From NCBI GenBank assembly GCA_003573975.1, contig AP018533.1, positions 868,001 to 932,000 on the forward strand: a stretch of 64,000 nt of DNA, read 5' to 3'. The translations under genes were made by a program, and so were the position numbers. Below, piece after piece: positions 12,500 to 40,482 of the stretch (the first letter of the stretch is position 1; each line of letters begins with the position of its first letter). This DNA is from Clostridiales bacterium CCNA10. Its GTDB lineage: Bacteria > Bacillota > Clostridia > Oscillospirales > Oscillospiraceae. The notes under the pieces are model-generated. The model saw nothing but the letters and a program-made list of their open reading frames with translations, was not told where the DNA came from and ran no database searches.

Positions 12500-12502
12500 A
12501 TC

Positions 12503-15833: not shown

Positions 15834-15861
15834 ATGCTTAGAGAAGGAGGCAAAAACACAC

Positions 15862-16374: not shown

Positions 16375-16386
16375 GGAGGGGGACGC

Positions 16387-16683: not shown

Positions 16684-16689
16684 AAGACC

Positions 16690-19337: not shown

Positions 19338-19353
19338 AAGGAGGTGGGACGGT

Positions 19354-22864: not shown

Positions 22865-22868
22865 GACC

Positions 22869-23303: not shown

Positions 23304-23330
23304 TTCATACTGACAAGGAGGAAACAGAAC

Positions 23331-24218: not shown

Positions 24219-24250
24219 AACCGAGGCAGCGAGAGCAAGGAGGGAGCGCC

Positions 24251-24706: not shown

Positions 24707-24709
24707 TTC

Positions 24710-25961: not shown

Positions 25962-27433
25962 TGCTTCGAGACGTTAAGCATACCGTAACGGACGGCCTTC
26001 TCGGCTTCGCCACCGCGACGGGAGACGGTAAGAGCCTCAAGATCGGCGTCTCCCCCATTGTGTCGGACACCCCGATCATCATCACCGGAGACATGGACGC
26101 GACCAAAATCAAGGATCGCCTCGGCCTGTCTCCTCTGGCTGACGCTGTCATGGACTCCGTGCAGTTCGGCGCGTCCCGGATCTACTGTCTCCCGGTCTCC
26201 GCTACTACGGCGGGCGAGCTGGGAATCGTTTCTAAGACCGGCGACGGCGGCGGCTCCGTTACCGTCGACGGCTCTCCGACGAACGCCTTCTCCGTGGTGG
26301 TTAAGTTCACCGCGCAAGGGCAGCTCAACACCGCCGCCTTTGTGTACTCTATCGACGGGGGAAACACCTTCACGGACGAGATCACCGTCCCCGTCAATGG
26401 CGAGTATGAGATCACCGGAACCGGCCTCAAGCTCAAGTTCACCGAGGCGACCGAGGAAGACCAGAAGCCGAGCTCGTTCCTTGTGAACGACTCCTACAGC
26501 TTCACCACCACCGCGCCCACCATGACGAACGGCGACGTCCTGGCGGCGTTCAAGAAGCTCCAGAAATTCGCCGAGGAGTATGAGTTCATCCACATCGTCG
26601 GCGAGAGTGACCTCGATCTCTGGCAGGCGGTGAGCGAGGCGCAAATCGAGCTCCGCGACGTCTACCACAAGCCCGTGTTCGTGGTATTCGAGGCCAAGTA
26701 TCCCACGACCGGCGACGAGGAGGACGAGCCCGACATGATGGGAGGCGGGGATCTCACTGACTGGGCCCTCGAGATGGAGGCCAAGCGGAAGAAGGTCAAG
26801 AACTACGACATCCAGGTCGTCACCGCCTGGGGGCGTCTGGTCAAGCTGGACGGCTCGACCCAGATCACCAACCTCGCGGGCCTTGTGTGTGGCCTCTACG
26901 CAAAGGCAGCGGTGCAGGAGTCCATCGGCAAGACCAGGACGGAGGCGGGCTTCGGCATCCCGAAGACGAAGCTCCTCGAGCTGCTCCCCGCCGAGATGGA
27001 CAACTCCATCATCGAGCTCCTGGATCTCGCGGGCTATCTGACGTTCCGGGAATACGACGGGCTCGACGACTTCTATGTCTACCATACGAAGATGATGAGC
27101 CCGGACGGGAGCGACTTCCGCTATGCCGAGGACGTCCGCGTCAAGAACAAGATCATCCGGGAGACCCGGAAGGAAGGACTCCTCCTGCTGAACGATGACA
27201 TCGACCTCGAGGACGTGCAGGGCGAGCTTGAGACCCGGGCGAAGTTCATGTTCGTCCCCTTGCAGCGGATGATCGACGCGAAGGAGATCAGCTCCGCCGA
27301 GATCACCGTCCCGGAAGGACAGGCGGAGACCATCCTCGAGGACGAGACTATGCGGGTCAAGATCCGCTATGTCTCCCGGGGCTATATCCGCGAGGTCGAG
27401 GTCGACCTCGGCAGGGCACAGCCCAGCGAATAA
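25961..27433 (+). CDS. Contractile tail sheath protein, DUF2586-like (Mu gpL role)
   Basis: 490 aa. Residues 1-75 and 190-490 fit the sheath fold (IGVSPIVSDTPIIITGDMDA, EFIHIVGESDLDLWQAVSEA, GYLTFREYDGLDDFYVYHTK and C-terminal strand VKIRYVSRGYIREVEVDLG). An inserted Ig-like beta domain sits at about 85-185. The sheath contracts around the tube during injection. It is followed by the tube gene. Confidence 0.9.
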   Translation: MLRDVKHTVTDGLLGFATATGDGKSLKIGVSPIVSDTPIIITGDMDATKIKDRLGLSPLADAVMDSVQFGASRIYCLPVSATTAGELGIVSKTGDGGGSVTVDGSPTNAFSVVVKFTAQGQLNTAAFVYSIDGGNTFTDEITVPVNGEYEITGTGLKLKFTEATEEDQKPSSFLVNDSYSFTTTAPTMTNGDVLAAFKKLQKFAEEYEFIHIVGESDLDLWQAVSEAQIELRDVYHKPVFVVFEAKYPTTGDEEDEPDMMGGGDLTDWALEMEAKRKKVKNYDIQVVTAWGRLVKLDGSTQITNLAGLVCGLYAKAAVQESIGKTRTEAGFGIPKTKLLELLPAEMDNSIIELLDLAGYLTFREYDGLDDFYVYHTKMMSPDGSDFRYAEDVRVKNKIIRETRKEGLLLLNDDIDLEDVQGELETRAKFMFVPLQRMIDAKEISSAEITVPEGQAETILEDETMRVKIRYVSRGYIREVEVDLGRAQPSE

Positions 27434-27453
27434 GGGAAGGAGGTTAAAGAGTT

Positions 27454-27894
27454 ATGTCCCTTAAAGTAAACGGTCAGACCTATAGCTGGGGCGACGTTGA
27501 CGTCAAGATCCCGGGCCTCGTCCTGGTCGTGCAGGAAATCAGCTACGACGACGAGCAGGACATGGAAGAAAGCTACGGCAAGGGCAACCGTCCCCGGGGC
27601 TATGGCAAGGGCAACTATAAAGCGTCCGGTAAAATGTCTATGCTCCGGGATGACTACGACGACGTCCTTGCCTATTGCAAGGCGAAGGGCGTCCCCTTCT
27701 ATGGCCTCGAGTGGCCTTCCGTGGTCGTCTCCTACGCCAACGAAGGCGAGCGCACCCGCATCGACGAGCTGAAGAAGGTCGTCCCGATCAAGCGCAGCCA
27801 CAAGGCAGCACAGGGCGACAAGTCCCTCACTGTCGACATCGACCTCATGATCGTCGGCGGCATTGTGGAGGACGGCGTCGAGCCCACGAAGTAA
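27454..27894 (+). CDS. Tail tube protein (Mu gpM-like)
   Basis: 146 aa, beta-rich. LKVNGQTYSWGDVDVKIPGL and a C-terminal strand pair VDIDLMIVGGIVEDGV suit the contractile-phage tube fold. AAGGAGG lies before the ATG. Located between sheath and assembly chaperone, as expected. Confidence 0.87.
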   Translation: MSLKVNGQTYSWGDVDVKIPGLVLVVQEISYDDEQDMEESYGKGNRPRGYGKGNYKASGKMSMLRDDYDDVLAYCKAKGVPFYGLEWPSVVVSYANEGERTRIDELKKVVPIKRSHKAAQGDKSLTVDIDLMIVGGIVEDGVEPTK

Positions 27895-27935
27895 AAACCA
27901 TCTCAAGATAATCGAGAATAGGAGGACACGAAACC

Positions 27936-28289
27936 ATGGAAGAAATCAAGAAAGACACCGCGCAGAAGTCCCAGACGGAGGAGCTCAAGGAGAAATACGG
28001 CAAGGTCTACCGCGTCGGCGCGACGATCGAGGTCGATGACGAGACCGAGAAGAATGTCGAGTTCTTCTTCAAGCGCCCCTCCACGGCGAGCTATGACAGA
28101 TATGTTAAGACCACCGCCCAGGGCGCGACGAAGGCGCTCAAGGTGTTCCTCTTTGACAACGTGGTCGAGGAGAGCCGGGCGTCTCTCGAGGCGAACCTTG
28201 AGGAGTTCCCGGCCCTGGCGCTCTCCATCGGTGAGAAGCTGCTCGGGATGCTGGGCCTCTCCAAACAGACAAATTTGAAGATGCTCTAA
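27936..28289 (+). CDS. Tail assembly chaperone, short form
   Basis: 117 aa acidic protein (MEEIKKDTAQKSQTEELKEK) ending SKQTNLKML. It is the G-type product of the tail chaperone pair that coats the tape measure during tail assembly. Near the end lies the slippery heptamer AAATTTG (28271-28277), at which a -1 shift fuses it to the second reading frame ending at 28501. Confidence 0.85.
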   Translation: MEEIKKDTAQKSQTEELKEKYGKVYRVGATIEVDDETEKNVEFFFKRPSTASYDRYVKTTAQGATKALKVFLFDNVVEESRASLEANLEEFPALALSIGEKLLGMLGLSKQTNLKML

Positions 28290-28501
28290 AAGAGCAGCTC
28301 TCGGAGGTGAGGGGGAACGTGGTGGAGTCCGGTCTCCTGGAAATCTACCGCTTCCTCCCTCCGGCTCTTTTAGAGGACTTCGACATTGAGGAGATCGGCC
28401 TCGACGAGTTCCTCCGGTACGTCGCGAAAGCGAGGTACATCCAGGAGCTCGAGGAGAGGATCGTCGCCCAGGCGATCGCGGACGTGTTCGCGTCGGATTA
28501 G
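27936..28501 (+). CDS. Tail assembly chaperone, -1 frameshift fusion (GT-type)
   Basis: After decoding 114 codons through the A AAT TTG heptamer, a -1 shift continues EDALKEQLSEVRGNVVESGL and on to the stop at 28501, giving about 188 aa. The second frame has an ATG-less lead-in, matching a shift product rather than an independent gene; a possible GTG start at 28307 is the alternative. Position before the tape measure and the small ratio of long to short form are typical of lambda-like G/GT and Mu gp41 systems. Confidence 0.8.
28271..28277 (+). promoter_or_regulatory. Programmed -1 frameshift site AAATTTG
   Basis: X-XXY-YYZ heptamer in the correct register (zero-frame codons AAT TTG, preceded by A). 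P-site and A-site tRNAs can re-pair on AAA and TTT. It is 10 bases before the zero-frame stop codon, which may help the shift. Confidence 0.82.
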
Positions 28502-28576
28502 CCGGGCGGCATCGGTCGCCTCTTTTAAGAGCACAAGGTCGCCTCCATCGTTTTGTTAGGAGGTGAAAGGCAAAGC

Positions 28577-30970
28577 ATGAGCTTAGAGTCCGTGTTCCGG
28601 CTGTCCCTCATAATGAACATGATCGACAACCTCACCGGGCCTATGGCCGGAGTCACATCAAGCGTCAACGGCACCGTCTCAAAGCTGCAAAAGGCAAACG
28701 CAGCGCTCGGCAATATGGCAAAGACGGGGGCCGTCATGCAGGAGGTCGGCTCGCAGATCACGGGGGCGGTGCTGTCCCCGGTCGAGGCTACATTTGAAAC
28801 CCGGAGAGCGATCGGTGAGCTCGCCTCCCTGGGCGTGAAGGATCTCGGCGTCGTGGAAGACGCCGCCCGGCAGTTCTCCGACCAATGGGCCGGAACGACG
28901 AAGGCCGACTTCATCGCGGCAGCCTACGACATCAAGAGCGGCATCGCGACGCTCTCGGACGAGGGCGTCGCGGAGTTCACCAGTCTCGCGGGCCTAACGG
29001 CAAAGGCCACAAAGTCGACGGTCGGCGAGATGACGTCATTGTTTGCCACGGGCTACGGCATCTATAAGAACTACTACGACGACATGAGCGACATCGAGTT
29101 CGGCGAGATGTTCTCGGCGGGTATCGCGAAGTCGGTGCAGCAGTTCAAGACAACGGGCTCGGAAATGGCCTCGAGCATCGAGAGCCTGGGCGCGTCGGCA
29201 ACAAACGCGAACGTCCCCCTCGAGGAGCAGCTCACCATCCTCGGTATGCTGCAAGGCACCATGAGCGGCTCGGAGGCGGGCACGAAGTACGCGGCGTTCC
29301 TGGGCGCGGCAGCGAAGGGCGGCGACGCCCTGGGCTTGTCGTTCCTGGACGCCAACAACCAACTAAAGAGTATGCCGGAGATCCTCGACCAGCTCCGGGG
29401 CAAATACGGCGAGACCATCGACGCGATGGAGAAGCAGGAGATCGCCGAAGCCTTCGGAACGGACGAGGCCGTCGACCTCATCGACCTGCTCTACAACAAG
29501 TGCGGAGACCTGCAAGGGAACATCCTCACCATGTACGACGCTCTCGGCTCCGGCACCGGCGTCGCCACGGAGATGGCGAACGCAATCAACGAAACGGAGC
29601 CCGAACGGTTTGAACGGCTCACGCAGCGCATCCAGAACGTGAAGGAGTCGATCGGGAATAGCTTACTCCCGACAATCAACGATCTCATGTCGACCGGCGA
29701 GCAGGTGCTCACAAAGGTCGGCTCGTGGGTCGAGGAGAACCAGGAGCTCGTCCGGGTCATCATGCTCGTCGTCCTGGCGATCGGCGGCTTCCTCACCATA
29801 GCGGGCACAGTCATCGCCGTCGTCTCCGGCGTGGGCTTGATTATCACGAAGGTAATCTCCGGGTTCAAGCTCCTCAAGGCCGGGTTCCTATTAGCGAAGG
29901 GAGCGCTCACGCCGCTCATATCGAGCGTGTGGAGCTTTACGGCGGCACTCCTGGCGAACCCTGTCACCTGGATCGTGATCGGCATCGTGGCCCTCATCGC
30001 GGCCCTGGTGCTGCTCTACAACAAGTGCGAGTGGTTCCGAAACGCGGTCAACGCAATCATCGACTTTTTCAAGGAGAAGCTCGGCGCAGCTCTTGAGGTC
30101 GCGTCGGCGATCTTCTCCGGCATCGGCAACGTCATCGGCTCCGTCATGAACGCAGCGAAGGCGACGGTCTCCCAGAACCTCGACAACATGCGATCCGCAT
30201 ACGAGGCGCACGGCGGGGGAATCCGTGGTGCAGCAGCGGCAGCGGTCGAGGGCGTCAAGGGCATCTATACGGCGGGCTTTACCTTCCTGGATAATCTCAC
30301 CGGCGGGCGGCTCTCGGCGATCCGTGACAAGTTTGTCGGCTTCGTGACGAACATAGCCTCGGGCGTGTCCGAACGGTTCACAGCCGTCAAGACGGCGTTC
30401 TCGAATGGAATCACCGCGATCAAGAACACGGTCACGGGAGCCGTGACGTGGTTCTTTGAGTCGGGCAAGCGCGTCGTCACCACATTCGCGAACGGTATCA
30501 AATCAGCGTTCACGGGCGCGGTCGACGCGGTAAAGGGCGGCTTGCAGCGCATCCGAAATATGCTCCCCTTCTCCGACGCGAAAGAAGGCCCTCTCTCGAC
30601 GCTGACCCTCTCGGGACAACGCACGATGACAACCTACGCCCACGGCCTCGAGCTGGCGCAGGATGCACCCGCCCAGGCAATCGAGAAGGGGCTCGACGGC
30701 GCGAAGGCTACGCTCGAACGCGAGCCCGTCCAGAAGGTCGACCTCGCAAGCGGAGGCGGCAAGAAGGAAGGCTCCGAGAGCGGAGGCTCCGGCGAGGGCA
30801 GCTCCGGCAAGCAAGTCATCATTCAAAAGCTGCTCATTCCGGTCGACCTCAAGAAGATCAAAGACCTCGAGCAGCTCCTCGCGATGCTCAAGGAGGTCGA
30901 GGACTACGCCGAGGCCAACGGCAGCGAGGAACCCGCAGACGATCAAGACGCCGAACCGGCACCGGCATAA
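28577..30970 (+). CDS. Tail tape measure protein
   Basis: 797 aa from ATG 28577 with AGGAGG upstream. The first half is Ala/Thr-rich helical with a TP901-type core (TKATKSTVGEMTSLFATGYG, then MASSIESLGASATNANVPLE). Two hydrophobic regions lie at about 390-475 (VIMLVVLAIGGFLTIAGTVI and a second ending VTWIVIGIVALIAALVL), and a Gly/Ser/Glu-rich C-terminus follows. It sets tail length and may form a membrane channel at infection. Longest tail gene, after the chaperones. Confidence 0.92.
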   Translation: MSLESVFRLSLIMNMIDNLTGPMAGVTSSVNGTVSKLQKANAALGNMAKTGAVMQEVGSQITGAVLSPVEATFETRRAIGELASLGVKDLGVVEDAARQFSDQWAGTTKADFIAAAYDIKSGIATLSDEGVAEFTSLAGLTAKATKSTVGEMTSLFATGYGIYKNYYDDMSDIEFGEMFSAGIAKSVQQFKTTGSEMASSIESLGASATNANVPLEEQLTILGMLQGTMSGSEAGTKYAAFLGAAAKGGDALGLSFLDANNQLKSMPEILDQLRGKYGETIDAMEKQEIAEAFGTDEAVDLIDLLYNKCGDLQGNILTMYDALGSGTGVATEMANAINETEPERFERLTQRIQNVKESIGNSLLPTINDLMSTGEQVLTKVGSWVEENQELVRVIMLVVLAIGGFLTIAGTVIAVVSGVGLIITKVISGFKLLKAGFLLAKGALTPLISSVWSFTAALLANPVTWIVIGIVALIAALVLLYNKCEWFRNAVNAIIDFFKEKLGAALEVASAIFSGIGNVIGSVMNAAKATVSQNLDNMRSAYEAHGGGIRGAAAAAVEGVKGIYTAGFTFLDNLTGGRLSAIRDKFVGFVTNIASGVSERFTAVKTAFSNGITAIKNTVTGAVTWFFESGKRVVTTFANGIKSAFTGAVDAVKGGLQRIRNMLPFSDAKEGPLSTLTLSGQRTMTTYAHGLELAQDAPAQAIEKGLDGAKATLEREPVQKVDLASGGGKKEGSESGGSGEGSSGKQVIIQKLLIPVDLKKIKDLEQLLAMLKEVEDYAEANGSEEPADDQDAEPAPA

Positions 30971-30989
30971 CAAGGAGGGAGAGACGACA

Positions 30990-31589
30990 ATGATTTACAC
31001 CGAAGACCAGATCGTCAAGGTGAACGGGGTCGTCCTCCCTGGCCTTGTTAAGAGTATCGAGGTCAAGGAGTCGGCCCAGATCGACGAGCAAGAGGTCGAG
31101 GGCAGCGCCACAAAGCCCAAACAGGCGACGGGCTACGAGGACGCGAAGGTCAATATCGAACTCATTCTCGACGACACACCAACGCAAACGAAGTACCAGC
31201 GGCTCGAGACGCTTCGGGCGATCTTCCGAACGCCCGGCCAGTCAGTCCCGAAGCCGCTCTCTATTGTCAGCGAAGACACGGCAGCGCACGGCGTCGACAA
31301 GGTTCTATTCAAGGGGCTCACTCACAAAATGGAGAACAAGAAGGAGCAGCTCACCGTCTCCCTTGAGTTCTGGGAGTACGTCCCGCAGACCATACAGACG
31401 ACGAGCAGCTCGTCGGGATCTTCGTCCGGCGGCGGCTCCTCTGGCGGGAGCTCCGGCGGAACCCAGCAGCAAACGACCTTGTCTTCTGACTATCAAAAAT
31501 ACTTGCAGACGAGCCGAGGGAAGTCCCCAGCCGTCGACGATGCAAGCACGGCGGCAGCTCTCGACAAGGTCTCACAGATGCCGTACTAA
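30990..31589 (+). CDS. Baseplate/tail protein after tape measure
   Basis: 199 aa from the ATG at 30990 with AAGGAGGG. Residues 1-125 form a compact beta domain (IYTEDQIVKVNGVVLPGLVK, ending LEFWEYVP) joined by a Ser/Gly linker (about 130-155) to a short helical tail. The fold could be a hub adaptor comparable to DUF6046-type proteins. It sits where Mu has gpN (tape-measure-proximal baseplate). Exact role not established. Confidence 0.65.
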   Translation: MIYTEDQIVKVNGVVLPGLVKSIEVKESAQIDEQEVEGSATKPKQATGYEDAKVNIELILDDTPTQTKYQRLETLRAIFRTPGQSVPKPLSIVSEDTAAHGVDKVLFKGLTHKMENKKEQLTVSLEFWEYVPQTIQTTSSSSGSSSGGGSSGGSSGGTQQQTTLSSDYQKYLQTSRGKSPAVDDASTAAALDKVSQMPY

Positions 31590-31607
31590 CCCGAGAGGAG
31601 GAACAGG

Positions 31608-32363
31608 ATGGAAACGCTCGAATTATTCTACCCTCAAATCGCGGCCCGCGCTGGCCCCTATACCTTCGACAAGGGCATAGAGATCGAGGTCTACTCCTCG
31701 AAGTCTTCTTATTTTGATTGGGCGAAGATCCGCTTCACGGAGCAGTTTCAACCGAAGATCTCACTCGCCCGGAAAGACCCGGCGGCGATTGAGCTCGGGT
31801 ATAACAATGTCTTTGAGGAGGTCTTCACCGGCTACGTCTCCAAGCCGTACAACGGAGGAGGCTTCACCGACGAAGTGACTCTCAAGGACGAGATGCTTCT
31901 CCTCGAGGAGACGCAGATCAACAACACATTCCTCGACACAACTCCGCAGGAGATGATCGCCTACTTTCTCGGGAAGGCCGGGCTCTCGAAGATGAAGCTC
32001 TCCTCCAAGGGATACCCGGAACGGAAACGGCTTCCCATTCGGCAGATGAACGTCATCGAGGCGATCAATGCCGTACATGCAGCATGGAACATCAAACAGC
32101 CGTTTTTCTTCTCCGGGGGCGTGTTCTATTGGGGAGAGAAGCCGGAGCAGGACAAGACCTACATCTTCGAGTATGGCGTCAACATCATCGCCCTCACCAG
32201 GAGCGGCGGCTCGTGGGAGCTCGAGACGGTCTCGGCCCCCTTTGTCCGACACTCCCACAAAATCAGCGTGAAGCATCCTAAAGTGAGCGGAGAGTTCGAG
32301 GTCTCGAAGGTCGTCTCGTCTACAAGCGAGAACGGCTTCATCCGCACGAAGATTTATTTCTAA
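31608..32363 (+). CDS. Baseplate hub protein (Mu gpP/gp44-like)
   Basis: 251 aa. The pattern AKIRFTEQFQPKISLARKDP, VFTGYVSKPY (with F-E-E before it), TPQEMIAYFLGKAGLSKMKL and HSHKISVKHPKVSG is that of T4 gp27-like hub proteins, with two beta-barrel lobes. These form the central ring holding the spike. Located between the adaptor and the spike-like gene. Confidence 0.78.
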   Translation: METLELFYPQIAARAGPYTFDKGIEIEVYSSKSSYFDWAKIRFTEQFQPKISLARKDPAAIELGYNNVFEEVFTGYVSKPYNGGGFTDEVTLKDEMLLLEETQINNTFLDTTPQEMIAYFLGKAGLSKMKLSSKGYPERKRLPIRQMNVIEAINAVHAAWNIKQPFFFSGGVFYWGEKPEQDKTYIFEYGVNIIALTRSGGSWELETVSAPFVRHSHKISVKHPKVSGEFEVSKVVSSTSENGFIRTKIYF

Positions 32364-32380
32364 GAAAGGAGGGGCGGGAA

Positions 32381-32740
32381 ATGCTTGAGCAGATGATGAG
32401 GGCGGTCGCGAGGAAGATCATCGCGCAGGAGTACCCCCACGCAAAGAGCCCCGCCGTGGTCTACGCCACCGTCAGCAAGGCGACGCAGCTCGGCGAGACG
32501 TTCGATCTCGAGGATCTTGTCATTCATAACGACGAGACCGGGAGCAGCTTCAAGGGCCACATAACGGCGCATTGGAACGAATACACCCTCACCGTCGTCG
32601 ATCGCTGGGGGAACGAGGACGAGAGCTTCCCTCCTCTCCCTGGCGTCAGATCCAAAGGACAATATAAGGCCGGGGCCTTCGTGGCCGTTGCGATGGCATA
32701 CGGGGACAGCCCGGCGATCATTGGGGAGGTGCAGCTATGA
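32381..32740 (+). CDS. Baseplate spike/OB-fold protein (Mu gp45-like)
   Basis: 119 aa. The C-terminal half (DESFPPLPGVRSKGQYKAGA, VAVAMAYGDSPAIIGEVQL) has the short strands of a gpV-type OB fold. It lacks a long beta-helical spike, so it may only form the base. The stop overlaps the next gene by 4 bp. Confidence 0.7.
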   Translation: MLEQMMRAVARKIIAQEYPHAKSPAVVYATVSKATQLGETFDLEDLVIHNDETGSSFKGHITAHWNEYTLTVVDRWGNEDESFPPLPGVRSKGQYKAGAFVAVAMAYGDSPAIIGEVQL

Positions 32741-33147
32741 CAGGGTTACACGACACCGACATCCGACTCAATGATGAATGGGCCCTCACGCAAGCGGCAG
32801 ACGGAGACGCGCCCCTCTGTTCGGGGCTTGAATGTCTATATCAGAACATCATCCTCGAAGCGCTCACACAGCCCGGGGATCTCTTTTATGACGCTTCGTT
32901 CGGCTGGGGGCTATACGACTTCATTCAATCCGAAGACGACGATCTTGTGCGGCTTGAAATCGCGCAGCGGGCGCGGCTGGGCCTTCAAAAGCGGGAGGTC
33001 ATCGTGCCCGAGAGCATAGAGATCGACGTCGGATTTTCGGACGACACCTTCCGGCTCCGCTGCTCCTTCCAGTTTGCGGACGAGGAGGAGCCCCGGGAGC
33101 TCAATGTCGTCATTAGTGCGGTCGGCGTGGAGGTGATAACAACATGA
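32737..33147 (+). CDS. Baseplate wedge protein, Mu gp46/gp25-like
   Basis: 136 aa. GLECLYQNIILEALTQPGDL, then DASFGWGLYDFI and the ending LNVVISAVGVEV, match the gp46/GpW baseplate family (T4 gp25 relatives), which joins sheath and baseplate. It is followed directly by gpJ as in Mu, with 4-bp overlaps on both sides. Confidence 0.88.
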   Translation: MTGLHDTDIRLNDEWALTQAADGDAPLCSGLECLYQNIILEALTQPGDLFYDASFGWGLYDFIQSEDDDLVRLEIAQRARLGLQKREVIVPESIEIDVGFSDDTFRLRCSFQFADEEEPRELNVVISAVGVEVITT

Positions 33148-34277
33148 TCGACAAAGCAATACTCGACGAAGTTCTCCCGGTTCCCGAGCTTGAAACGCTC
33201 AAAGAGGAGAAGATCGCCGAGCTGAAAGAAGAAGGCTTCGCAATCACGAACTTCCATTCGGGCGGCGTCTTCTATACGCTGCTCTTGATAGTCCTCCGCA
33301 TTAAGATCGAGTTCACGGAGTTACTACGGGCCATTCTGAACAATATGACCCTCACACACTCCACCGGCGCATGGCTCGACATTAAGGCGGCAGACTACGG
33401 GAAGAAGCGCAAGAAGGCCCAGAAGGCGCAGGGCCTCGTCACACTGTCCAGGACGAACGACCAGGGCGAGGCCGTGAAGATCGAGAAGGGCCACATCTTC
33501 AAGACGCAAAAGGACATCAACGGAGAGGAGCTTCGCTTCTTTGCCATAGAGGCGGCGGTTCTGCAAAAAGGGAGCCGGTCGGTGGATGTCCTGGTAGAAG
33601 CGGAGAAAGAGGGCTCTCGGTACAATGTGCCGGAAGGACAGATCACCCGGAGCCTCACGTTCCTCAATGGGATCGACGGCATCACAAACGGCGAGGACTG
33701 GATCGTCCGGGAAGGAAGCGACACCGAGGACGACGAGGGGCTCCGAACGCGGGCGCTCCGATCCTGGTCGGAGCTCGCGGCCCGGTCTATTGAGGACACA
33801 TTCATCAATGCAGCGGAGGCCGTCCAGGGCGTCCTATTTGCACAGGCTGACTGTGACCACCCGAGAGGGCAAGGGACGGTCGACGTGATTGTAACAGGGA
33901 CGGCGGGAGAGGCGACGGAAGGACTTCTCGACGAAGTTCGGGATGCCGTTGACAAGATTGCCGGGCCATACGATAATGTTCTTGTGAAGTCTTCTACAAC
34001 GGTTTCCCAGGACATCGAGGTCACGGTCTCGACCTCTGACGTGTCGGAGGACGAGGACATCAAGAACAGGGTCTCCGCGATCCTTGCCGAGCTGCTCGCC
34101 GTCCGAAAGGGCCGGAGGTTCAACGAGCTCCGGCGCTCCGACATCAACTTCGCAATCCGCAGCAACTACAGCGCCGCCACGAACGCGGAGATCATCACCC
34201 CCGCCGAGGACGTGGTGCTCGAGAAGGACAAGGTCATCACTCTCGGCTCCGTCTCTGTGACAGTGAGAAGGGAGTGA
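33144..34277 (+). CDS. Baseplate J-like protein (Mu gp47-like)
   Basis: 377 aa. LTHSTGAWLDIKAADYGKKR, EEGSRYNVPEG-type motif (here KEGSRYNVPEGQI), then GEDWIVREGSDTEDDEGLRT and ADCDHPRGQGTVDVIVTGTA are hallmark segments of the Baseplate_J family. It forms the wedge arm that moves on host contact. Ends 4 bp before the gp48-like gene. Confidence 0.93.
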   Translation: MIDKAILDEVLPVPELETLKEEKIAELKEEGFAITNFHSGGVFYTLLLIVLRIKIEFTELLRAILNNMTLTHSTGAWLDIKAADYGKKRKKAQKAQGLVTLSRTNDQGEAVKIEKGHIFKTQKDINGEELRFFAIEAAVLQKGSRSVDVLVEAEKEGSRYNVPEGQITRSLTFLNGIDGITNGEDWIVREGSDTEDDEGLRTRALRSWSELAARSIEDTFINAAEAVQGVLFAQADCDHPRGQGTVDVIVTGTAGEATEGLLDEVRDAVDKIAGPYDNVLVKSSTTVSQDIEVTVSTSDVSEDEDIKNRVSAILAELLAVRKGRRFNELRRSDINFAIRSNYSAATNAEIITPAEDVVLEKDKVITLGSVSVTVRRE

Positions 34278-34281
34278 TCGG

Positions 34282-35175
34282 ATGAAACGGTTCGACACCT
34301 TCGGCGCGTATATGTTCGACCTTCTCTTTGCCCCGTTGAAACGAGGGAAGCGGGCGGCGAATCAGTTCTTCATCTTCTTCAAGGTCATCGGACGCATTTT
34401 CGACGGCATGAAGAAGGACGCCTTCCGGCTTCGGGATGAGCTCAATGTCGCGACCGCGAGCCCGGTCATGCTTCCGGTACACGGACAGGATCGGGACATG
34501 CCGAGGCTTGAGGGCGAGAGCATTGAAAACTATCGGGCCCGCCTATCCATGAAGGGGATCATCTCTGAATGGGGCGGAACAAAGAGCGGCATCCTCTATG
34601 CGTTGACCTCTCTCGGATACGAGCAGAGCACGATCGAGCCGTTCTCCTATCAAGACCCCGAGAGGTGGGCCGAGTTCATCGTATTCCTCAAGGGCTCGAA
34701 GCAAAGCGGCGTCAACAACCTCGCAGTCATTGACGCCGAGGTTCGGAAGGTCAAGGAAGGCAGCTCAAAACCTGCATACGGAGCGGAGTCCGGGGGAGGC
34801 ATTGAGATCCACTCGAAGACCTTTTCCGGCTTCTCGAGGTATCCACGTTGCGGGGAAATTGTTTGCGGCGTCTGGCCCCGGGTGGTCAGTGTCGGGCACC
34901 TTCTGGCGTCCGAAGTTCACGCGAGCAGCTCTCCGGGCTCCGGTGAGGTCGAGTTCCCGAAGGTGGGAACGATCGCGGCCTCCGAAAAGTTCTATCAACC
35001 GTGCGCCTTTGTTATGTATGAGGGCCTCTCCTCTAATATGGAGGTGGGCTCGAAGGCAAGCACCGGCGCGAAGATCTACCCCGTTTGTTCTCCGGTGCTT
35101 CGCTGCTCCGGGGTGACATTTATGACGGAAGGAGGAGAAAACCATGCCGAAGACAATCACATCGGTCGGGATTGA
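34282..35175 (+). CDS. Tail/baseplate protein, Mu gp48-like with C-terminal extension
   Basis: 297 aa. Residues about 1-170 resemble the DUF2313/gp48 family (GKRAANQFFIFFKVIGRIFD, ESIENYRARLSMKGIISEWG, GTKSGILYALTSLGYEQST). Residues 175-297 are a Ser/Gly/Val-rich beta region not usual for gp48 and may be a fibre-attachment domain. It overlaps the next gene by 32 bp. Confidence 0.75.
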   Translation: MKRFDTFGAYMFDLLFAPLKRGKRAANQFFIFFKVIGRIFDGMKKDAFRLRDELNVATASPVMLPVHGQDRDMPRLEGESIENYRARLSMKGIISEWGGTKSGILYALTSLGYEQSTIEPFSYQDPERWAEFIVFLKGSKQSGVNNLAVIDAEVRKVKEGSSKPAYGAESGGGIEIHSKTFSGFSRYPRCGEIVCGVWPRVVSVGHLLASEVHASSSPGSGEVEFPKVGTIAASEKFYQPCAFVMYEGLSSNMEVGSKASTGAKIYPVCSPVLRCSGVTFMTEGGENHAEDNHIGRD

Positions 35176-35473
35176 GAAAATCGGGCGGCGCTTCGCCGAC
35201 TCGATTGACCACGCGGCCTATACGCTGAACGGAGCGCCGAAGACGGTCGAGCCGTTCCGCAAGCTCGTCACGGCGGACACCGTGAAGATCTATATCTATT
35301 TCGACGACACCGTCACCGGAAACGTGGCGAACGTGCAGCTCGTAGACACGGACGGAGACATCGTCGCACAGTCCGACCGGGAGTTCGAGAAACCGCCGAG
35401 CAAGGGTCTTTATGTGGCCTTCAAATACACCATCATTGAAAAAGAAACGGAGGTACAGATCGAAAGTGAATAG
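35144..35473 (+). CDS. Phage tail-region protein, unknown
   Basis: 109 aa, beta-rich (TADTVKIYIYFDDTVTGNVA, NVQLVDTDGDIVAQSDREFE, KGLYVAFKYTIIEKETEVQI). GGAGGA precedes the ATG. Strand-rich composition and position between baseplate and DGR suggest a fibre or fibre-connector subunit. No family was recognised. Confidence 0.65.
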   Translation: MPKTITSVGIEKIGRRFADSIDHAAYTLNGAPKTVEPFRKLVTADTVKIYIYFDDTVTGNVANVQLVDTDGDIVAQSDREFEKPPSKGLYVAFKYTIIEKETEVQIESE

Positions 35474-35777
35474 CTATCAAAAAATCGGATGGCTCGACCA
35501 CGTCGAAGATGTCGAGACGGGCGAGGTCATCCAGGAAGGAACGCCGGTTAGTCAGACGAACATGAACCACATGGACGACGGCATCTTCGAGAACCGCGAA
35601 GCCGTCATTCTCCACGAGGCCCAGATCGCCGACGCGCAGAAAGAGATCAAAGTGCTGAAAGACGCCACCCTCAACAACATGACGAACAACGTCTTTCTCA
35701 TCAATTTTGACTCCGTGAACTCCGTCGCGATCACCTCCGGCATCTATGACCCCGTGGCGAGAAAGCTCTATGTATAG
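35466..35777 (+). CDS. Phage tail-region protein, coiled coil
   Basis: 103 aa from GTG at 35466 with GGAGGT upstream. NSYQKIGWLDHVEDVETGEV then EGTPVSQTNMNHMDDGIFEN resembles the N-terminal part of many tail-tip proteins, followed by a heptad-like helix (EAVILHEAQIADAQKEIKVL) and a short end. Perhaps a trimeric fibre stub. It overlaps both neighbours by 8 bp. Confidence 0.65.
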   Translation: MNSYQKIGWLDHVEDVETGEVIQEGTPVSQTNMNHMDDGIFENREAVILHEAQIADAQKEIKVLKDATLNNMTNNVFLINFDSVNSVAITSGIYDPVARKLYV

Positions 35778-36084
35778 GGTCGCTTGCACCCTCAAAGAAA
35801 CAAGCTGCATACTCGGGAACTTTTTCGGCGAGCTTTGCCCGGTATGTGAAAGGTGTCGAGAACTCTCGGACAACGAGCTCGTCCTTATGACCGCGAGCGG
35901 TCTCACTCTCGAAGGGAAGGACGTCCTTGTTATTGAGGGACACAGCTCCATCACAGGGGAGCCCGCAAAGGTAAAGCTCACCGACTACGGCTTCGAGTTC
36001 TTCGGGGACATCACCGAGATCGCCCGCATTAGAAATGCGAGGTGCTGCTACATTGGAACCGTCAATACTTCAAAAGAAGGCTGA
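35770..36084 (+). CDS. Cysteine-rich phage protein upstream of avd
   Basis: 104 aa from ATG 35770. The cysteines (ACTLKETSCILGNFFGELCP, VCERCRELSD, and RNARCCYIG at the end) give CxxCxxC at residues about 23-29, suggesting metal binding. A central beta stretch reads LVLMTASGLTLEGKDVLVIE. It overlaps avd, so it shares the DGR transcript. Function unknown. Confidence 0.6.
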   Translation: MYRVACTLKETSCILGNFFGELCPVCERCRELSDNELVLMTASGLTLEGKDVLVIEGHSSITGEPAKVKLTDYGFEFFGDITEIARIRNARCCYIGTVNTSKEG

Positions 36085-36406
36085 AATCCTACTCGAACGG
36101 GATGTCTACCCCTTGCTCAAGAACTTCCCCCAGGCCGAAAAGTTTAGTTTGTCGCAGGAGATCAAGCAATCATGCTTCCGGCTGATCCGCGCGGCGGTCA
36201 TGGCGAACAACCTCACCGTCGTCAAGAAGCGGCTCGAATGGCTGGACGAGGCGGACGCCGAGAAGACGCTCCTCCTCGTGCTGTTTGGAGTCGCCCGGAC
36301 GCAGAAGTACATCACCGAGAAGAAAGTCCACGAGCTGCAAACGAAACTCAACGAGCTGGGGCGCATTATTGGAGGCTTGCAAAAGCACTTCATCAACAAC
36401 CGATAA
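36053..36406 (+). CDS. avd: DGR accessory variability determinant (Avd)
   Basis: 117 aa from TTG at 36053, with GAGGTG 8 nt upstream; an ATG at 36035 lacks a ribosome site. The four helices (ILQKKAEILLERDVYPLLKN, FSLSQEIKQSCFRLIRAAVM, LTVVKKRLEWLDEADAEKTL, HELQTKLNELGRIIGGLQKH) are those of the bAvd/four-helix-bundle family, basic on one face. Avd forms a pentamer that binds the reverse transcriptase and template RNA and is needed for cDNA synthesis. It is followed by the TR after 37 bp. Confidence 0.88.
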   Translation: MEPSILQKKAEILLERDVYPLLKNFPQAEKFSLSQEIKQSCFRLIRAAVMANNLTVVKKRLEWLDEADAEKTLLLVLFGVARTQKYITEKKVHELQTKLNELGRIIGGLQKHFINNR

Positions 36407-36758
36407 AAAAGTAAACCGCACCTACTTAGGGTTATCTCTGTATGGCGTCGAACCGCGCGAACCGTGGGTACAATTCGGCCCGCAACTGGAATTGGAACGA
36501 CTCGTCCAATCGGAACGCGAACCTCGGTTTCCGCCCCGCCTTGTAGGTTATTACGTCATTCGCGGCTACGGCTTCGAGTGCGTGTCCTTGTTATACTTCA
36601 AGGGAGAGGTAATCCTTCGCCTTGTCTCTGACGGCGCAAAAACAGTGACGAACCTCCGGCCCGCCCTCTCGTATTGGGAGGCCGGGGCAAGTCTACAATG
36701 TGGGTATAAACCCGCGTCATAGGTGCCAAGCCGTTTCTGAAAAGGAAAGGATGCCACG
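36407..36758 (+). ncRNA. DGR template RNA region (TR plus spacer)
   Basis: The avd-RT gap of 352 bp has no credible gene and carries the 95-bp TR at 36444-36538 and a 220-bp spacer. In studied DGRs the TR is transcribed as part of an RNA whose flanking parts, especially the spacer toward the reverse transcriptase, are needed for priming and for Avd-RT binding. Only the TR can be proved from sequence; RNA limits are a guess. Confidence 0.75.
36444..36538 (+). repeat. DGR template repeat (TR)
   Basis: 95 bp, 20 adenines, many in AAC or AAT codons if read in the VR frame. Pairs with the VR at 38472-38566: 13 mismatches, all at TR adenines (8 isolated or paired in AAC/AAT, also TAC and GAC), none at the other 75 bases. 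The last 17 bases, CTCGGTTTCCGCCCCG and one before, are identical and GC-rich, as for an IMH-like end. Confidence 0.97.
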
Positions 36759-37982
36759 ATGACGAAATTCCCCTTATTTATTAAAACCGCGCAGAACATT
36801 AAACACCCGCCGATCCCACCGATCATGCCACTTGCCACCTATGAGGAGGCGGTCGGCTACGAGAGGATAAAGGTCGGCTACAAGCAAGCCCTAAGAGGGC
36901 AAAGAAAGTACACCCGGGAGGCCGTCAAGTACGATCTTTTCCGGGAGAAGAACAACGTCGACCTCTGGCGCGAGCTCAAGAGCTCAAAGTACACGCCGGG
37001 CCCGTATCACTTCACCGTCATCACGGAGCCAAAACGGAGAGACCTCTCCATCCCGAAGCTCCGCGACAAGGTGGTGCAGCTCGTCATCCACGAGGAGCTG
37101 CAAAACATGTTCCGGCCCGTGTTCATCAATGGCTCGTTTGCTTGCCAGTACGGGAGGGGCCCGATCCGCGCCGCCTTCAAAGTGCAGCACGACATGAGGG
37201 TCGCCCGTATGAAATGGGGCGACGACGTGGCCGTCATCAAGATCGACGCCCGGAAGTTCTTCTATTCCATCGACCGCGACCTGCTCAAGAAAATCCTTGC
37301 GAAGCGGTTCAAGAAGCTCAAGAAGAAGCGCCCCGACATGTACGGGGATCTCCTTCGGTTTTACCGGCTTCTTTGCAAAGTGATTGACAGCTCACCGGAA
37401 GGCGAGAGAGGCATCCCACTCGGGAATGTCAGCTCCCAGGACTTCGCGAACATCTACCTCAACGAGCTCGATCAATTTTGCGTCCGCTTCCTCGGCGCGA
37501 AGCTCTATACCCGGTACATGGACGACATTGTCATTATTGCACCGAGCAAGGAGATCGCCCGGGAGTGGCTGGCGAAGATCAAGGAGTTCCTCCGCGTGAG
37601 GTTACACCTTGACACCAACAAAAAGACAAAGGTTTTCTATATGCGGCAGGGCGTGAACGCCTACGGCTTCAAAATCAAGGCCACCCATTTAATGCTCCGC
37701 ACCGAGTCCAAGCGACGGGAGAAGCGGCGTATTAAAGCGATGGTTCGGAAGTTGAGGGAAGGCAAGATCACGCGGGCGGCGGTCGTCCAGGCGGTCAACT
37801 CGTGGCTCGGGTTCGCTCGGTGGGCCAGCGCCTACAACCTCGCGAAGAAGATATTCGCGCCCTACCGCTTCATTAAAACGGAAGGAGCGATCCCTTATGG
37901 CGCAATATCTCGGAACCGTCAAGCTCGGCGGCTTCTACAACAACGGCGCAATCCTCAAGCGGCCCACAAGGCCGTGGCGTAA
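36759..37982 (+). CDS. DGR reverse transcriptase
   Basis: 407 aa. RT motifs in order: SIPKLRDKVVQLVIHEEL (RT1-2), VAVIKIDARKFFYSID (RT3, D163), GIPLGNVSSQDFANIYLNEL (RT4, 218-237, the DGR-type LGxxxSQ in place of the QG of retrovirus/group II enzymes), YMDD (253-256) and a thumb with YGFKIK. It lacks maturase and endonuclease domains, as DGR enzymes do. It makes adenine-mutagenised cDNA from TR RNA with Avd. A ribosome site AAAGGAAAGGA precedes the ATG. The last 86 bases overlap the target gene. Confidence 0.96.
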   Translation: MTKFPLFIKTAQNIKHPPIPPIMPLATYEEAVGYERIKVGYKQALRGQRKYTREAVKYDLFREKNNVDLWRELKSSKYTPGPYHFTVITEPKRRDLSIPKLRDKVVQLVIHEELQNMFRPVFINGSFACQYGRGPIRAAFKVQHDMRVARMKWGDDVAVIKIDARKFFYSIDRDLLKKILAKRFKKLKKKRPDMYGDLLRFYRLLCKVIDSSPEGERGIPLGNVSSQDFANIYLNELDQFCVRFLGAKLYTRYMDDIVIIAPSKEIAREWLAKIKEFLRVRLHLDTNKKTKVFYMRQGVNAYGFKIKATHLMLRTESKRREKRRIKAMVRKLREGKITRAAVVQAVNSWLGFARWASAYNLAKKIFAPYRFIKTEGAIPYGAISRNRQARRLLQQRRNPQAAHKAVA

Positions 37983-39753
37983 TGATACGACACCGTCCGG
38001 CGCGTCTGCTGCTGGCGACATCCCCTCGATGTCCGGCAGCATGGCGAACTATACCTTCGGGGACACCCCCAGCGCAGACGCGAACAAGCTCCAATGGGTC
38101 AAGATCAAGGACGGAGACAAGACCCTGCTCATTTGCGACCGCGTCATCCTGGTCAATGTCTCGTGGGACGACTTGAACGGGCAGGGCTACGTCACCGGCA
38201 AGACCGTCACCATTGACGGGGCAAAATACAAGTGCCGCCTCCTCACTGGCGGCAGCAACTACCGGAACGGAGACACTTATGCGGGCGGAACTCCTACCAA
38301 TAACGAATGGGACAGGTTCATCACCCGCGAGGAAGTCATCTCCGGCCTCCCTGCTCCGGTCTCCTCCGACCTGGACAGCAACACCAACGCGACCGACCTA
38401 AACAGCGCACACAACAAGTTTTGGAACTGGTACTATGTGTATTCCTGGTGCCAAGAGACCTACACGGGAGGGGCGTCGAGCCGCGCGTCCCGTGGGTGCA
38501 ATTCGGCCCGCTTCTGGGGTTGGAACGTCTCGTCCTATCGGGGCGCGGACCTCGGTTTCCGCCCCGTCCTTGAAATTCTGAACACTGACCCTCTGATCTC
38601 TGACAGTGACCGCAATCTCGGAGATAAGAACCAGAACTTCACGATCGAGTACACGGTCGACGACGCCGACTCCGGCGACGTCCTCGCGGCGACGGAGTCG
38701 ATTGATGGGCGAACGACGAAGTCGTTCGCCCCGACGCGAAAAGCAAAAAACACCATCTCGATCAACATCCGAGAGCACTCCCTCGGGAGCCACACGGTCA
38801 AGGTCGTCGTAACGGACGGCCAGGGCGGCACCGCTACCCGGACATGGACATTCACCCGAGTCAACTCCGCCCCGACCATTTCCGGCTCGGACACCAACCT
38901 CGGAGACAAGAACGTCGGCTTCACCTACAACTACACCGTCGACGACGCGGACGGCGACGAAGTCACGGTCGTCGAAAAGCTGAACGACGAGGTTCTTCGC
39001 ACCGTCAACAATGCCCCCAAGGGCGAGCAGCTCTCCGTCTCTATCACTTCGGAAAAGCTCTACGCCCTGGGCCTCAATACGGTCAACAATCTCGTCATCT
39101 CGGCCAGCGACGGCCAGGGCGGCACGACCTACCGCCGCCTCACCTTCAAGCGGACGAACTCGGCCCCGGCTATCTCTGGACAGGACGAAGATCTCGGCCA
39201 GCAGACGGGCAGCTTCGCCGAGAAGTACACCGTCACCGACGTCGAGGGCGACAACGTGGTCGTCACCGAGTTCATCGACGACAAGCAGATCCGCAGCTAT
39301 CAAGCGACACTCGGCCAGGAGGAGACGATCGAGCTCTCCCGCGAGAATTGGCTCACCCTCACGAACGGGGCGCACCAGCTCCGCGTCGAGGCCGTGGACG
39401 GCAACTTCGCGACGAGCGTGAGGGTTTGGAACTTCTCCAAGAAGGAGACGGTCATCGCCTTCCAGTTCGCCAAGCCGGAGGAAACCGACGCCCGGGCGAC
39501 GAAGATCCTCATCACTCCCACATGGCACATTGAAGGATCGGTCGCTAAGGTCGAGGCGTGCAACAACGCCTTCGACGACTCCCCGGCCTGGGAGGACATC
39601 ACGGCGCAGGTCGCAATCAATCGAGTCTACAATTTCCTCAACGAGTCCAAAACCGCCGAAAAGTGGGGCGTGGATGTCCGCTTCACCATCACGAAGAACG
39701 AGGGCTATGAGGAGGAGGTCTCGATCTCTGGGTTTGGAGGTGCTTACGAATGA
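37897..39753 (+). CDS. DGR target protein: variable C-type-lectin-like domain plus Ig-like repeats
   Basis: 618 aa, GGAAGGAG before the ATG, starting inside the reverse transcriptase gene. Residues 1-225 make a lectin-like (formylglycine/CLec) domain: NKFWNWYYVYSWCQETYTGG, then the VR-coded residues about 192-223 ending LGFRP. Variable sites differing from the TR are 195, 198, 201, 206, 208, 211, 214, 216 and 218. Residues about 235-515 hold three similar beta-sandwich repeats, each opening with ISxSDxNLGD-like sequence and including DDADGDEV, ending with a fourth beta domain to 618. It is most likely the receptor-binding tail protein. VR is internal, not at the usual C-terminus. Confidence 0.93.
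   Translation: MAQYLGTVKLGGFYNNGAILKRPTRPWRNDTTPSGASAAGDIPSMSGSMANYTFGDTPSADANKLQWVKIKDGDKTLLICDRVILVNVSWDDLNGQGYVTGKTVTIDGAKYKCRLLTGGSNYRNGDTYAGGTPTNNEWDRFITREEVISGLPAPVSSDLDSNTNATDLNSAHNKFWNWYYVYSWCQETYTGGASSRASRGCNSARFWGWNVSSYRGADLGFRPVLEILNTDPLISDSDRNLGDKNQNFTIEYTVDDADSGDVLAATESIDGRTTKSFAPTRKAKNTISINIREHSLGSHTVKVVVTDGQGGTATRTWTFTRVNSAPTISGSDTNLGDKNVGFTYNYTVDDADGDEVTVVEKLNDEVLRTVNNAPKGEQLSVSITSEKLYALGLNTVNNLVISASDGQGGTTYRRLTFKRTNSAPAISGQDEDLGQQTGSFAEKYTVTDVEGDNVVVTEFIDDKQIRSYQATLGQEETIELSRENWLTLTNGAHQLRVEAVDGNFATSVRVWNFSKKETVIAFQFAKPEETDARATKILITPTWHIEGSVAKVEACNNAFDDSPAWEDITAQVAINRVYNFLNESKTAEKWGVDVRFTITKNEGYEEEVSISGFGGAYE
38472..38566 (+). repeat. DGR variable repeat (VR)
   Basis: 95-bp near-copy of the TR in the target gene, same orientation, starting GGCGTCGAG and ending TTTCCGCCCCG. 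Changes at TR adenines: 7 to G, 5 to T, 1 to C. All 13 lie in nine codons, all non-synonymous (N to S, S, F, G, Y, G, D; Y to C; D to V). VR is the only diverged copy seen in the window. Confidence 0.97.
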
Positions 39754-40277
39754 TGCAGTATTTGACACCCAAAGCGTCCATCAAGGACATCAACGAAGCG
39801 GCGTTGCGTAGCAGCTCCGCCCAGGCGGTCGCCGAGATCATGTTCGTCAAGATGGCCCAGGAGCAGCAGCTCGACGACACCACCGTCGCGGAGTTCCCCG
39901 AGCTCTTTGTCCAGTGGGACGAGAATTGGAGGGGGAAGGCGGGCGACATTGTTCGGGATGAGGGGCAGCTCTACCGCTCCATCCACGACGTCACCGACGC
40001 CGGGCAGAACCGGAAACCCTCGGAGAACCCTTCCGTGTGGACACGGATCGGGAACCCCCTCGAGGAGTTCCCCGAGTGGATACAACCCCTCGGAGCGCAT
40101 GACGCATACAGCAAGGGCGCGAAGGTATCGCACAACGGCAAGAAGTGGACGTCCGACTCTGACGGCAACGTGTGGGAGCCTGGGGTCTACGGGTGGACGG
40201 AGTACGTCGAGCCCGCAGCGGCCAGTGAAGCCGCCCAGGAGCCCGCAGGAGACCCGGACGGAGAGCCGGGAGAGTAA
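39750..40277 (+). CDS. Phage protein with carbohydrate-binding-like C-terminus
   Basis: 175 aa, overlapping the target stop (ATGATG). Residues 1-60 are helical. Residues about 70-155 contain two short aromatic modules (GQLYRSIHDVTDAGQNRKPS, then DAYSKGAKVSHNGKKWTSDS and VYGWTEYVE), typical of CBM5/12-like chitin-binding modules often placed at phage tail tips. The end is Ala/Glu/Pro-rich. Possibly a fibre partner or chaperone for the DGR target. Confidence 0.72.
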   Translation: MMQYLTPKASIKDINEAALRSSSAQAVAEIMFVKMAQEQQLDDTTVAEFPELFVQWDENWRGKAGDIVRDEGQLYRSIHDVTDAGQNRKPSENPSVWTRIGNPLEEFPEWIQPLGAHDAYSKGAKVSHNGKKWTSDSDGNVWEPGVYGWTEYVEPAAASEAAQEPAGDPDGEPGE

Positions 40278-40303
40278 CTTCACCAGGAGGGCGAAAAGGC
40301 AAA

Positions 40304-40405
40304 GAGAGGGGCGGCAAAAGCCGCCCCTCTCGGAGTCTAAAAAGCCCGCCCTCTTGCGTGGGTCGCCCCGCCGTTTTTGGGGCGGCTGACGCAAGCGAGC
40401 GGGCC
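40304..40405. other. Two GC-rich hairpins at prophage right end
   Basis: GAGAGGGGCGGC with its complement GCCGCCCCTCTC (40304-40331, four-base loop), then a second larger hairpin at about 40345-40402 built from GCCCGC, CTTGCGT and GCCCCGCC with matching complements and a GTTTTT loop. Neither has a T-run, so they may block readthrough by structure or shape the late mRNA 3' end. Confidence 0.6.
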
Positions 40406-40413
40406 TCGGAAAT

Positions 40414-40482
40414 GTTTCTAAGAACAGGCGCTTTTTTCTCAAGTATCCTGTCCGAGTTTCTCAAAAATCTTGTCGCGCTACA
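40414..40482. promoter_or_regulatory. Prophage right end: transposase-binding-like sites
   Basis: Read inward from the TACA right terminus (complement strand), TTTGAGAAAC at offsets 18-27, CTTGAGAAAA at 41-49 and TTAGAAAC at 62-69 recur at about 22-bp steps, the spacing of Mu A sites. The first matches the outermost left-end site. Confidence 0.78.

What the first reader, a model, noticed from the sequence alone, without database searches (positions are those of the whole stretch)
36053..39753. Diversity-generating retroelement inside a Mu-like prophage
avd, TR, reverse transcriptase and a VR-bearing target are all present. TR (36444-36538) and VR (38472-38566) are both 95 bp and ungapped. All 13 differences fall on TR adenines (13 of 20 adenines; 0 of 75 other bases), all changing amino acids in nine codons of the target. 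This shows past adenine-directed mutagenic retrohoming and points to active receptor switching by the phage.
Basis: partly seen in the sequence, partly recalled or inferred. Interest (0 to 1): 0.95.

Follow-up and report, generated by a model that had tools for sequence, protein, structure and literature searches.

The report
Hypermutation cassette in a Mu-like prophage
A bacterial chromosome carries a Mu-like prophage whose own reverse-transcriptase cassette has likely rewritten one patch of a predicted fibre-like surface protein, since every difference lies where the template has an adenine; this cassette type is already known from phage Mushu, but its clade lacks the DNA hairpin found after the target in about half of other such cassettes, and an RNA of unclear role between its parts likely primes the copying.

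Summary
It is a genuine DGR (bAvd, DGR-type RT, TR, VR) in a 36,054-bp Mu-like prophage with 5-bp target duplications. It belongs to a described group, the phage Mushu DGR. In 116 related targets, variation sits on the TR-adenine codons. 'Active receptor switching' is not shown; the target is a predicted lectin-fold plus Ig-domain protein ('tentaclin').

Added here: (1) Rfam RT-9 RNA lies at 36555-36653, 17 nt after the TR; picked by RNA pattern alone, 25 of 25 viral loci sit beside a DGR RT and Avd. Other RT-n families lie at the same place in other DGRs. (2) TR end and spacer are complementary across 47 unseen DGRs (p 4e-4). (3) A canonical target hairpin is found in 0 of 24 Mushu-clade targets against 26 of 51 other DGRs; here VR is mid-gene, followed by a codon-invariant CCTTGAA (25 of 25) complementary to the RT-9 core. 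Spacer-target docking is only a hypothesis.

The parts
4429..40482 (+). Mu-like prophage (36,054 bp), ends TG...CA, flanked by 5-bp duplications ATTAT at 4424-4428 and 40483-40487
   Evidence: termini resemble those of the FP_Mushu record by eye. MuA-like transposase 8041-10110, MuB-like 10121-11095, Mu Gam-like 11385-11906
33144..35175 (+). Baseplate J-like and tail I-like genes upstream of the cassette
   Evidence: Pfam Baseplate_J E 2e-35; PHROG tail protein E 3e-129
36035..36406 (+). avd, accessory variability determinant (123 aa)
   Evidence: Pfam PF22296 bAvd E 5e-29; PHROG 3206 'Avd protein of DGR'; NCBIfam Avd below its cut-off
36444..36538 (+). Template repeat (TR), 20 adenines
36539..36543 (+). 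TR 3' junction CCTTG, predicted to pair with 36599-36603 (CAAGG)
   Evidence: general test; letters checked; not proven for this clade
36555..36653 (+). RT-9 RNA (Rfam RF03080), the DGR spacer
   Evidence: 83.0 bits against 46.1 gathering, E 1.8e-12
36553..36583 (+). Covarying hairpin 1, tip CUACGG
   Evidence: 11 of 12 pairs with a change on both sides in 27 sequences
36595..36606 (+). Spacer core ACTTCAAGGGAG; predicted priming adenosine A36605 (by analogy with BPP-1)
   Evidence: Invariant in 11 of 11 RT-selected or phage sequences; position of priming inferred
36618..36636 (+). Covarying hairpin 2
   Evidence: 3 of 4 pairs with a change on both sides
36759..37982 (+). DGR reverse transcriptase (407 aa; YMDD, LGNVSSQ)
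37897..39753 (+). Target gene (618 aa): predicted lectin-fold N-terminal domain plus Ig-like domains
38472..38566 (+). Variable repeat (VR), in the middle of the target gene
38563..38580 (+). Codon-conserved element just 3' of VR; CCTTGAA at 38568-38574
   Evidence: Codons GTC (24 of 24 with Val), CTT, GAA, CTG (25 of 25) without synonymous change; CCTTGAA 25 of 25
39750..40277 (+). Downstream gene with chitin-binding-like module (CBM_5_12)
   Evidence: Pfam E 8e-9

Best explanation
This is a diversity-generating retroelement of the phage Mushu type in a Mu-like prophage, in which the Avd-reverse transcriptase pair is predicted to copy the TR RNA with errors at adenines, likely primed from the RT-9 spacer RNA, and the cDNA would replace the VR in the middle of a predicted lectin-plus-Ig surface protein gene. 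Shown: all parts, adenine-only TR/VR differences, the same bias across related targets, a covarying spacer RNA at a near-fixed distance from TR, no canonical target hairpin, a codon-conserved element after VR. Inferred: RNA priming (as in BPP-1), pairing of TR end and spacer, the priming base A36605 with first copied base G36533, and that the varied face binds a host or environmental ligand. The hairpin's job may be done by the conserved element after VR.
Confidence: 0.88

Rival explanations
1. A dead or dying DGR: it retrohomed in the past, but this copy no longer does.
For: No read data; Mushu read evidence is mixed. A cut-off relative exists: L071 keeps avd, TR end and spacer, but its sequence leaves Mushu's about 100 nt after the spacer core begins and no RT follows.
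Against: Frames are open here, the RT keeps YMDD and LGNVSSQ, VR differs from TR at 13 of 20 adenines with 0 other changes, and early, head, tail and lysis genes are present.
Confidence: 0.1
2. The target is a head (capsid) decoration protein as the name Hoc-like says, so the DGR would tune mucus or surface sticking of the capsid rather than receptor binding.
For: PHROG 10993 Hoc-like, E 1e-85, best stretch residues 420-611; published naming and mucus idea (PMC5883640, passages).
Against: The gene lies after baseplate J and tail I, not among the head genes; the profile's best solved match is a tail fibre protein over the Ig part, E 1.5e-10; PMC10743442 says that the Mushu protein's modelled topology is unlike T4 Hoc (passages).
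Confidence: 0.3
3. TR and VR are an ordinary diverged duplication and the adenine pattern is chance or base composition.
For: Two 86% identical repeats exist.
Against: p 2e-11; the pattern repeats in other loci and at protein level.
Confidence: 0.005
4. The conserved element after VR is kept only for the protein (R-P-V-L-E-x-L-N) and has no role as DNA or RNA.
For: Residues R, P, L, E, L, N are invariant in the 24 aligned domains. Some loci are near copies, which inflates codon identity.
Against: Four codons in it (V, L, E, L) show no synonymous change in 24 or 25 loci, while nine conserved codons further on average 0.47 codon identity and six upstream ones 0.56 in the same loci.
Confidence: 0.15

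Closest known systems
DGR of Faecalibacterium phage FP_Mushu (Mushuvirus mushu; PMC5883640, PMC11792537, PMC10805732, passages read)
   Same: Same gene order avd-TR-RT-target, 76% RT identity, 78% DNA identity over 87% of the 5-kb query, same RT-9 spacer at 17 nt, similar prophage ends.
   Different: Another phage genome in another host; own TR and VR letters; a CBM_5_12 gene downstream where Mushu has two small hypothetical genes.
BPP-1 DGR (prototype)
   Same: RT, Avd, TR, VR, adenine mutagenesis; spacer RNA with a CUACGG-tipped hairpin and a segment complementary to the TR end.
   Different: BPP-1 VR ends near the 3' end of mtd and a GAAA-loop hairpin begins 3 bp after it; its spacer is Rfam Phage_DGR, not RT-9.
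Tentaclins (PMC10743442, passages read)
   Same: N-terminal C-lec domain carrying the VR, followed by Ig domains; Mushu's protein is one of their comparisons.
   Different: Their C-terminal seven-residue consensus was not tested here.
Rfam RT-9 RNA (RF03080)
   Same: Full-length match above gathering score.
   Different: The entry as printed here gives no function; the tie to the DGR spacer is drawn from my calls. Its founding paper could not be read.

Membership tests
Diversity-generating retroelement | TR/VR pair differing almost only at TR adenines | tested here: met
   13 of 13 at adenines, p 2e-11
Diversity-generating retroelement | DGR-type reverse transcriptase | tested here: met
   Best solved relative 8ub7, which BPP-1 brt matches over its full length; LGNVSSQ against QG...SP in the four group II-like RTs (that this motif marks DGRs is recalled)
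Diversity-generating retroelement | Accessory protein Avd | tested here: met
   Pfam bAvd over cut-off; NCBIfam Avd under its cut-off, 66.9 of 80 bits
Diversity-generating retroelement | VR on a C-type lectin fold | tested here: inconclusive
Phage DGR as described in PMC3240598 | Hairpin with 7-10 bp GC-rich stem and GRNA loop 4-34 bp after VR | tested here: not met
   0 of 24 Mushu-clade targets, 26 of 51 other DGRs, 0 of 1020 shuffles. A paper read calls it important but not strictly required (passage), so this marks a variant, not exclusion
Diversity-generating retroelement | Mutagenic retrohoming observed | not testable with these tools
   Needs reads or culture
Mu-like transposable phage | MuA/MuB/Gam homologues and short target duplication | tested here: met
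Tentaclin | N-terminal C-lec domain plus Ig-like domains | tested here: inconclusive
   Ig part clear; C-lec part weak
Tentaclin | Seven-residue consensus in the last Ig domain | not tested
   Consensus letters not read
Rfam RT-9 (RF03080) | Score above gathering threshold | tested here: met
   83.0 against 46.1 bits
Rfam Phage_DGR (RF03022) | Score above gathering threshold | tested here: not met
   Not among the window's three matches; found in BPP-1

The most novel reading that the evidence does not exclude
Mushu-clade DGRs are a hairpin-less class in which the spacer RNA itself finds the target: its invariant core UUCAAGG pairs with TR (CCUUG, 5 pairs) to prime cDNA and then with the codon-invariant CCTTGAA just after VR (7 pairs) to dock the RNA-linked cDNA, so RNA-DNA pairing replaces the cruciform and lets a VR sit in the middle of a gene. 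More widely, the Rfam RT-2, RT-9, RT-14, RT-17 and Phage_DGR RNAs would be one functional class, the DGR spacer.
Probability: 0.2. Interest if true: 0.8.

Novelty: new variant of a known kind. Interest (0 to 1): 0.5.

Why it matters
How a DGR's cDNA finds and enters its target is still called incompletely understood in a 2026 paper (PMC12875486, passage), and the hairpin after VR is part of the current account. A clade with no such hairpin, a mid-gene VR and a codon-frozen DNA element that can pair with the spacer RNA makes the question testable. Tying orphan Rfam RT-n RNAs to the DGR spacer gives them a likely job, and gives DGR finders an RNA handle that works without the protein.

Tried and rejected
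Loop-tolerant duplex energies between TR end and spacer with swapped partners: not significant, 17 DGRs (p 0.16; 14 after removing near relatives, p 0.18). Contiguous helices in wide windows: p 0.24 and 0.09. The narrow window (p 0.013 and 0.006) was chosen after seeing those data, so it was fixed and run on another set: 80 loci, TR found in 69, 51 after removing near copies of each other, p 1e-4, controls 0.62 and 0.57, wide window 0.12. On checking, 4 of the 51 (L088, L092, L147, L135) were near copies of the first set; without them n is 47, p 4e-4, controls 0.73 and 0.44, wide window 0.13. L077 and L082 were left out of the 17 (near copy of L074; TR almost touching the RT).

Does the spacer fit VR better than TR? 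No: VR better 21, TR better 23, ties 7 of 51. VR junction against own spacer is above swaps (p 5e-5 with the last six bases shared with TR; 0.026 for the flank alone; TR flank alone 0.06). This neither shows nor excludes docking.

Empty attachment site: no match to the joined flanks in 60 congeners, not even to one flank, so the test says nothing. Canonical hairpin in this target: none; best inverted repeat is 93 bp after VR with loop ACTC and is missing in several relatives. The hairpin screen also misses Lagaffe, L002 and L014 (loop GCCA), and finds only a 6-bp stem in YPCBV-1. Foldseek with the 234-residue domain: nothing below E 0.001. RT tree: with L182 counted, the DGR label needs two changes, not one; L182 was a wrong 52-residue frame picked by my script; the other four non-DGR RTs form one group (97/100). 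RT-9 in 295 genomes of the order: match in 3, above cut-off in 2, one of them the host itself. L017, L020, L161 and L162 were not scanned for Rfam.

Print searches for RT-9 with DGR: 0 papers; none on the point in the listings; PMC8143477, passages, cites the RT-n founding paper for another matter. That founding paper and the BPP-1 RNA papers are not held, so I cannot say that the link is unpublished.
Full report
The observation. TR 36444-36538 and VR 38472-38566 are 95-bp ungapped copies; all 13 differences fall on the 20 TR adenines and none on the other 75 bases (p 2.2e-11), changing nine codons, all to another residue. A blind repeat search gives the same pair. avd (36035-36406), RT (36759-37982) and target (37897-39753) are identified by Pfam and PHROGs. 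No other copy of the TR was found in the host genome at E 0.001.

The carrier. The element sits in a Mu-like prophage of 36,054 bp (4429-40482), with ends TG...CA and a 5-bp duplication ATTAT on both sides; the ends resemble those of the Mushu record. It has MuA-, MuB- and Gam-like genes and endolysin, holin, terminase, portal, protease and major head, sheath, tape measure and baseplate genes. A sheath gene predicts a contractile tail. It lies between genes that look like a response regulator and a sensor kinase (below named cut-offs) and mnmG. The empty-site search was uninformative: neither flank matched in 60 congeners.

What is known already. The closest relative in the phage collection by annotated record is the DGR of Faecalibacterium phage Mushu: 78% DNA identity over 87% of the 5-kb query and 76% RT identity; an unannotated faecal clone is equally close, and a metagenomic contig (L004) has 97% RT identity. 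The Mushu DGR, its Hoc-like target and variable reads over its VR are published (PMC5883640, passages); a later study saw no VR peak in one Mushu sample and a peak shifted to the 3' side in three others (PMC11792537, passages); an ancient Mushu genome has its variants concentrated in this gene (PMC10805732, passages). PMC10743442 classes such targets as tentaclins (passages). So the DGR as such is a new member of a described group.

Natural test of adenine-directed variation. A search for the target found 2751 relatives among 7992 scored, the best 120 listed. Of these, 115 could be laid on the window's protein without gaps (five dropped for length); with the query that is 116. Mean column entropy is 2.79 bits in the 11 codons with a TR adenine, 0.40 in the other 22 VR codons and 0.13 in the 585 outside. 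One non-adenine codon also varies (209, TGG here); the near relative L004 has an adenine codon there. At the nine sites with an AAY codon in TR, 0 of 1035 residues fall outside the 15 that NNY can give. This shows adenine-directed diversification in the family over time; it does not show that this copy is active now.

The spacer RNA. Rfam RT-9 (RF03080) matches 36555-36653 at 83.0 bits. Of 15 related loci scanned, 13 carry it. Among the 12 sequences with a TR in hand (window included) it starts 17 nt after the CCCG that ends the TR in 11, and 19 nt in L012. To avoid picking by protein, a pattern from the RNA core was used: in viral contigs 25 of 25 loci have a DGR RT and Avd beside it (some are stretches of contigs already found); in genome contigs 22 loci, of which 14 have the RT, one more (L071) has Avd, TR end and spacer but no RT, and seven have neither RT, Avd nor an RT-9-like surrounding. 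In 27 distinct sequences two hairpins covary: 97.7% of cells paired, score 0.778 against 0.253 shuffled.

RT-9 is not alone. BPP-1's spacer is Rfam Phage_DGR. Among 59 further loci scanned (40 of the 51-DGR set plus eight others of it, with a few near copies), 10 carry RT-14 (8, two of them the same phage), RT-2 (1) or RT-17 (1), on the same strand, starting between 7 bases before and 24 bases after the TR end; the other 49 match no RNA family there. The curated RT-14 structure itself pairs the TR end and first bases after it with the spacer. RT-9 and Phage_DGR both open with a hairpin tipped CUACGG and share an AUCC, hairpin, AAAYACAUUA order (seen by eye; not tested).

Pairing of TR end and spacer. 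A swap test with a window fixed beforehand gave p 1e-4 on 51 DGRs; four proved near copies of the first set, and without them, n 47, own 14.48 against swapped 13.19, p 4e-4; control windows 0.73 and 0.44; wide window 0.13. Earlier looser tests were not significant. For this element the best helix is CCUUG (36539-36543) with CAAGG (36599-36603). In BPP-1 the same search finds AUCACCU with AGGUGGU at spacer 48-54; that its A56 primes and G117 is copied first is recalled, while priming by an internal spacer adenine is in PMC12875486 (passage). The same geometry here points to A36605 and G36533 (letters checked): a prediction. In this clade the pairs are nearly invariant, 4 of 27 sequences break one and 1 breaks another, and RNAalifold favours another register, so the exact pairs are open. 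The pattern search fixed the core letters, so covariation in this helix could not appear there.

The missing hairpin and the frozen element. PMC3240598 describes, for phage DGRs, a hairpin with 7-10 bp stem and GRNA loop 4-34 bp after VR (passages). My screen shows it in BPP-1, VP58.5, BalMu-1 and phiWae15, not in Lagaffe, L002, L014 or (6-bp stem only) YPCBV-1; in 26 of 51 other DGRs; in 0 of 1020 shuffles; and in 0 of 24 Mushu-clade targets, one of 25 being too short (Fisher 3e-6, treating rows as independent, which they are not). In these targets VR is followed by codons GTC CTT GAA NNN CTG with no synonymous change at GTC, CTT, GAA or CTG (24 or 25 loci), against 0.47 mean codon identity at nine conserved residues further on and 0.56 at six upstream. 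CCTTGAA is there in 25 of 25, and is the exact complement of the spacer core UUCAAGG; the TR has CCTTGT. A docking role of the spacer on target DNA fits, but the general test shows no preference of spacers for VR over TR (21 against 23 of 51, 7 ties).

Verdict. The DGR is real and of known type. Its clade is a variant: RT-9 spacer, mid-gene VR, no canonical hairpin, a DNA-level conserved element. Receptor switching and present activity are not shown.

Noticed in passing
L174:5559-7781 (G000:C1:1735559-1737781): A second DGR in the same bacterial genome: TR 128 bp, 17 of 39 adenines changed, 2 other changes; no Rfam match in its spacer.
   Followed up: partly
L175:6226-8726 (G000:C1:1095226-1097726): A third DGR in the same genome: TR 121 bp, 17 of 32 adenines changed, 0 others; its spacer matches Rfam RT-2.
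   Followed up: partly
L071:6766-8000: Oscillibacter An907 contig keeps avd, TR end and a spacer identical to Mushu's for about 100 nt, then diverges and has no RT: a cut-off DGR.
   Followed up: partly
37897-38028: The target's first 44 residues are in part conserved in relatives, but 10 of 120 listed database copies have 574 aa, as does the target of the Mushu record: that start is probably too late.
   Followed up: partly
39750-40277: A gene with a chitin-binding-like module lies after the target; Mushu has two small hypothetical genes there.
   Followed up: no
46855-47017 and 62348-62428: Lysine riboswitch and ZTP riboswitch in the bacterial flank.
   Followed up: no
L013:5876-5969: RT-17 RNA starts 24 nt after the TR of a viral DGR whose VR differs at 30 of 37 TR adenines and 2 other bases.
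   Followed up: no
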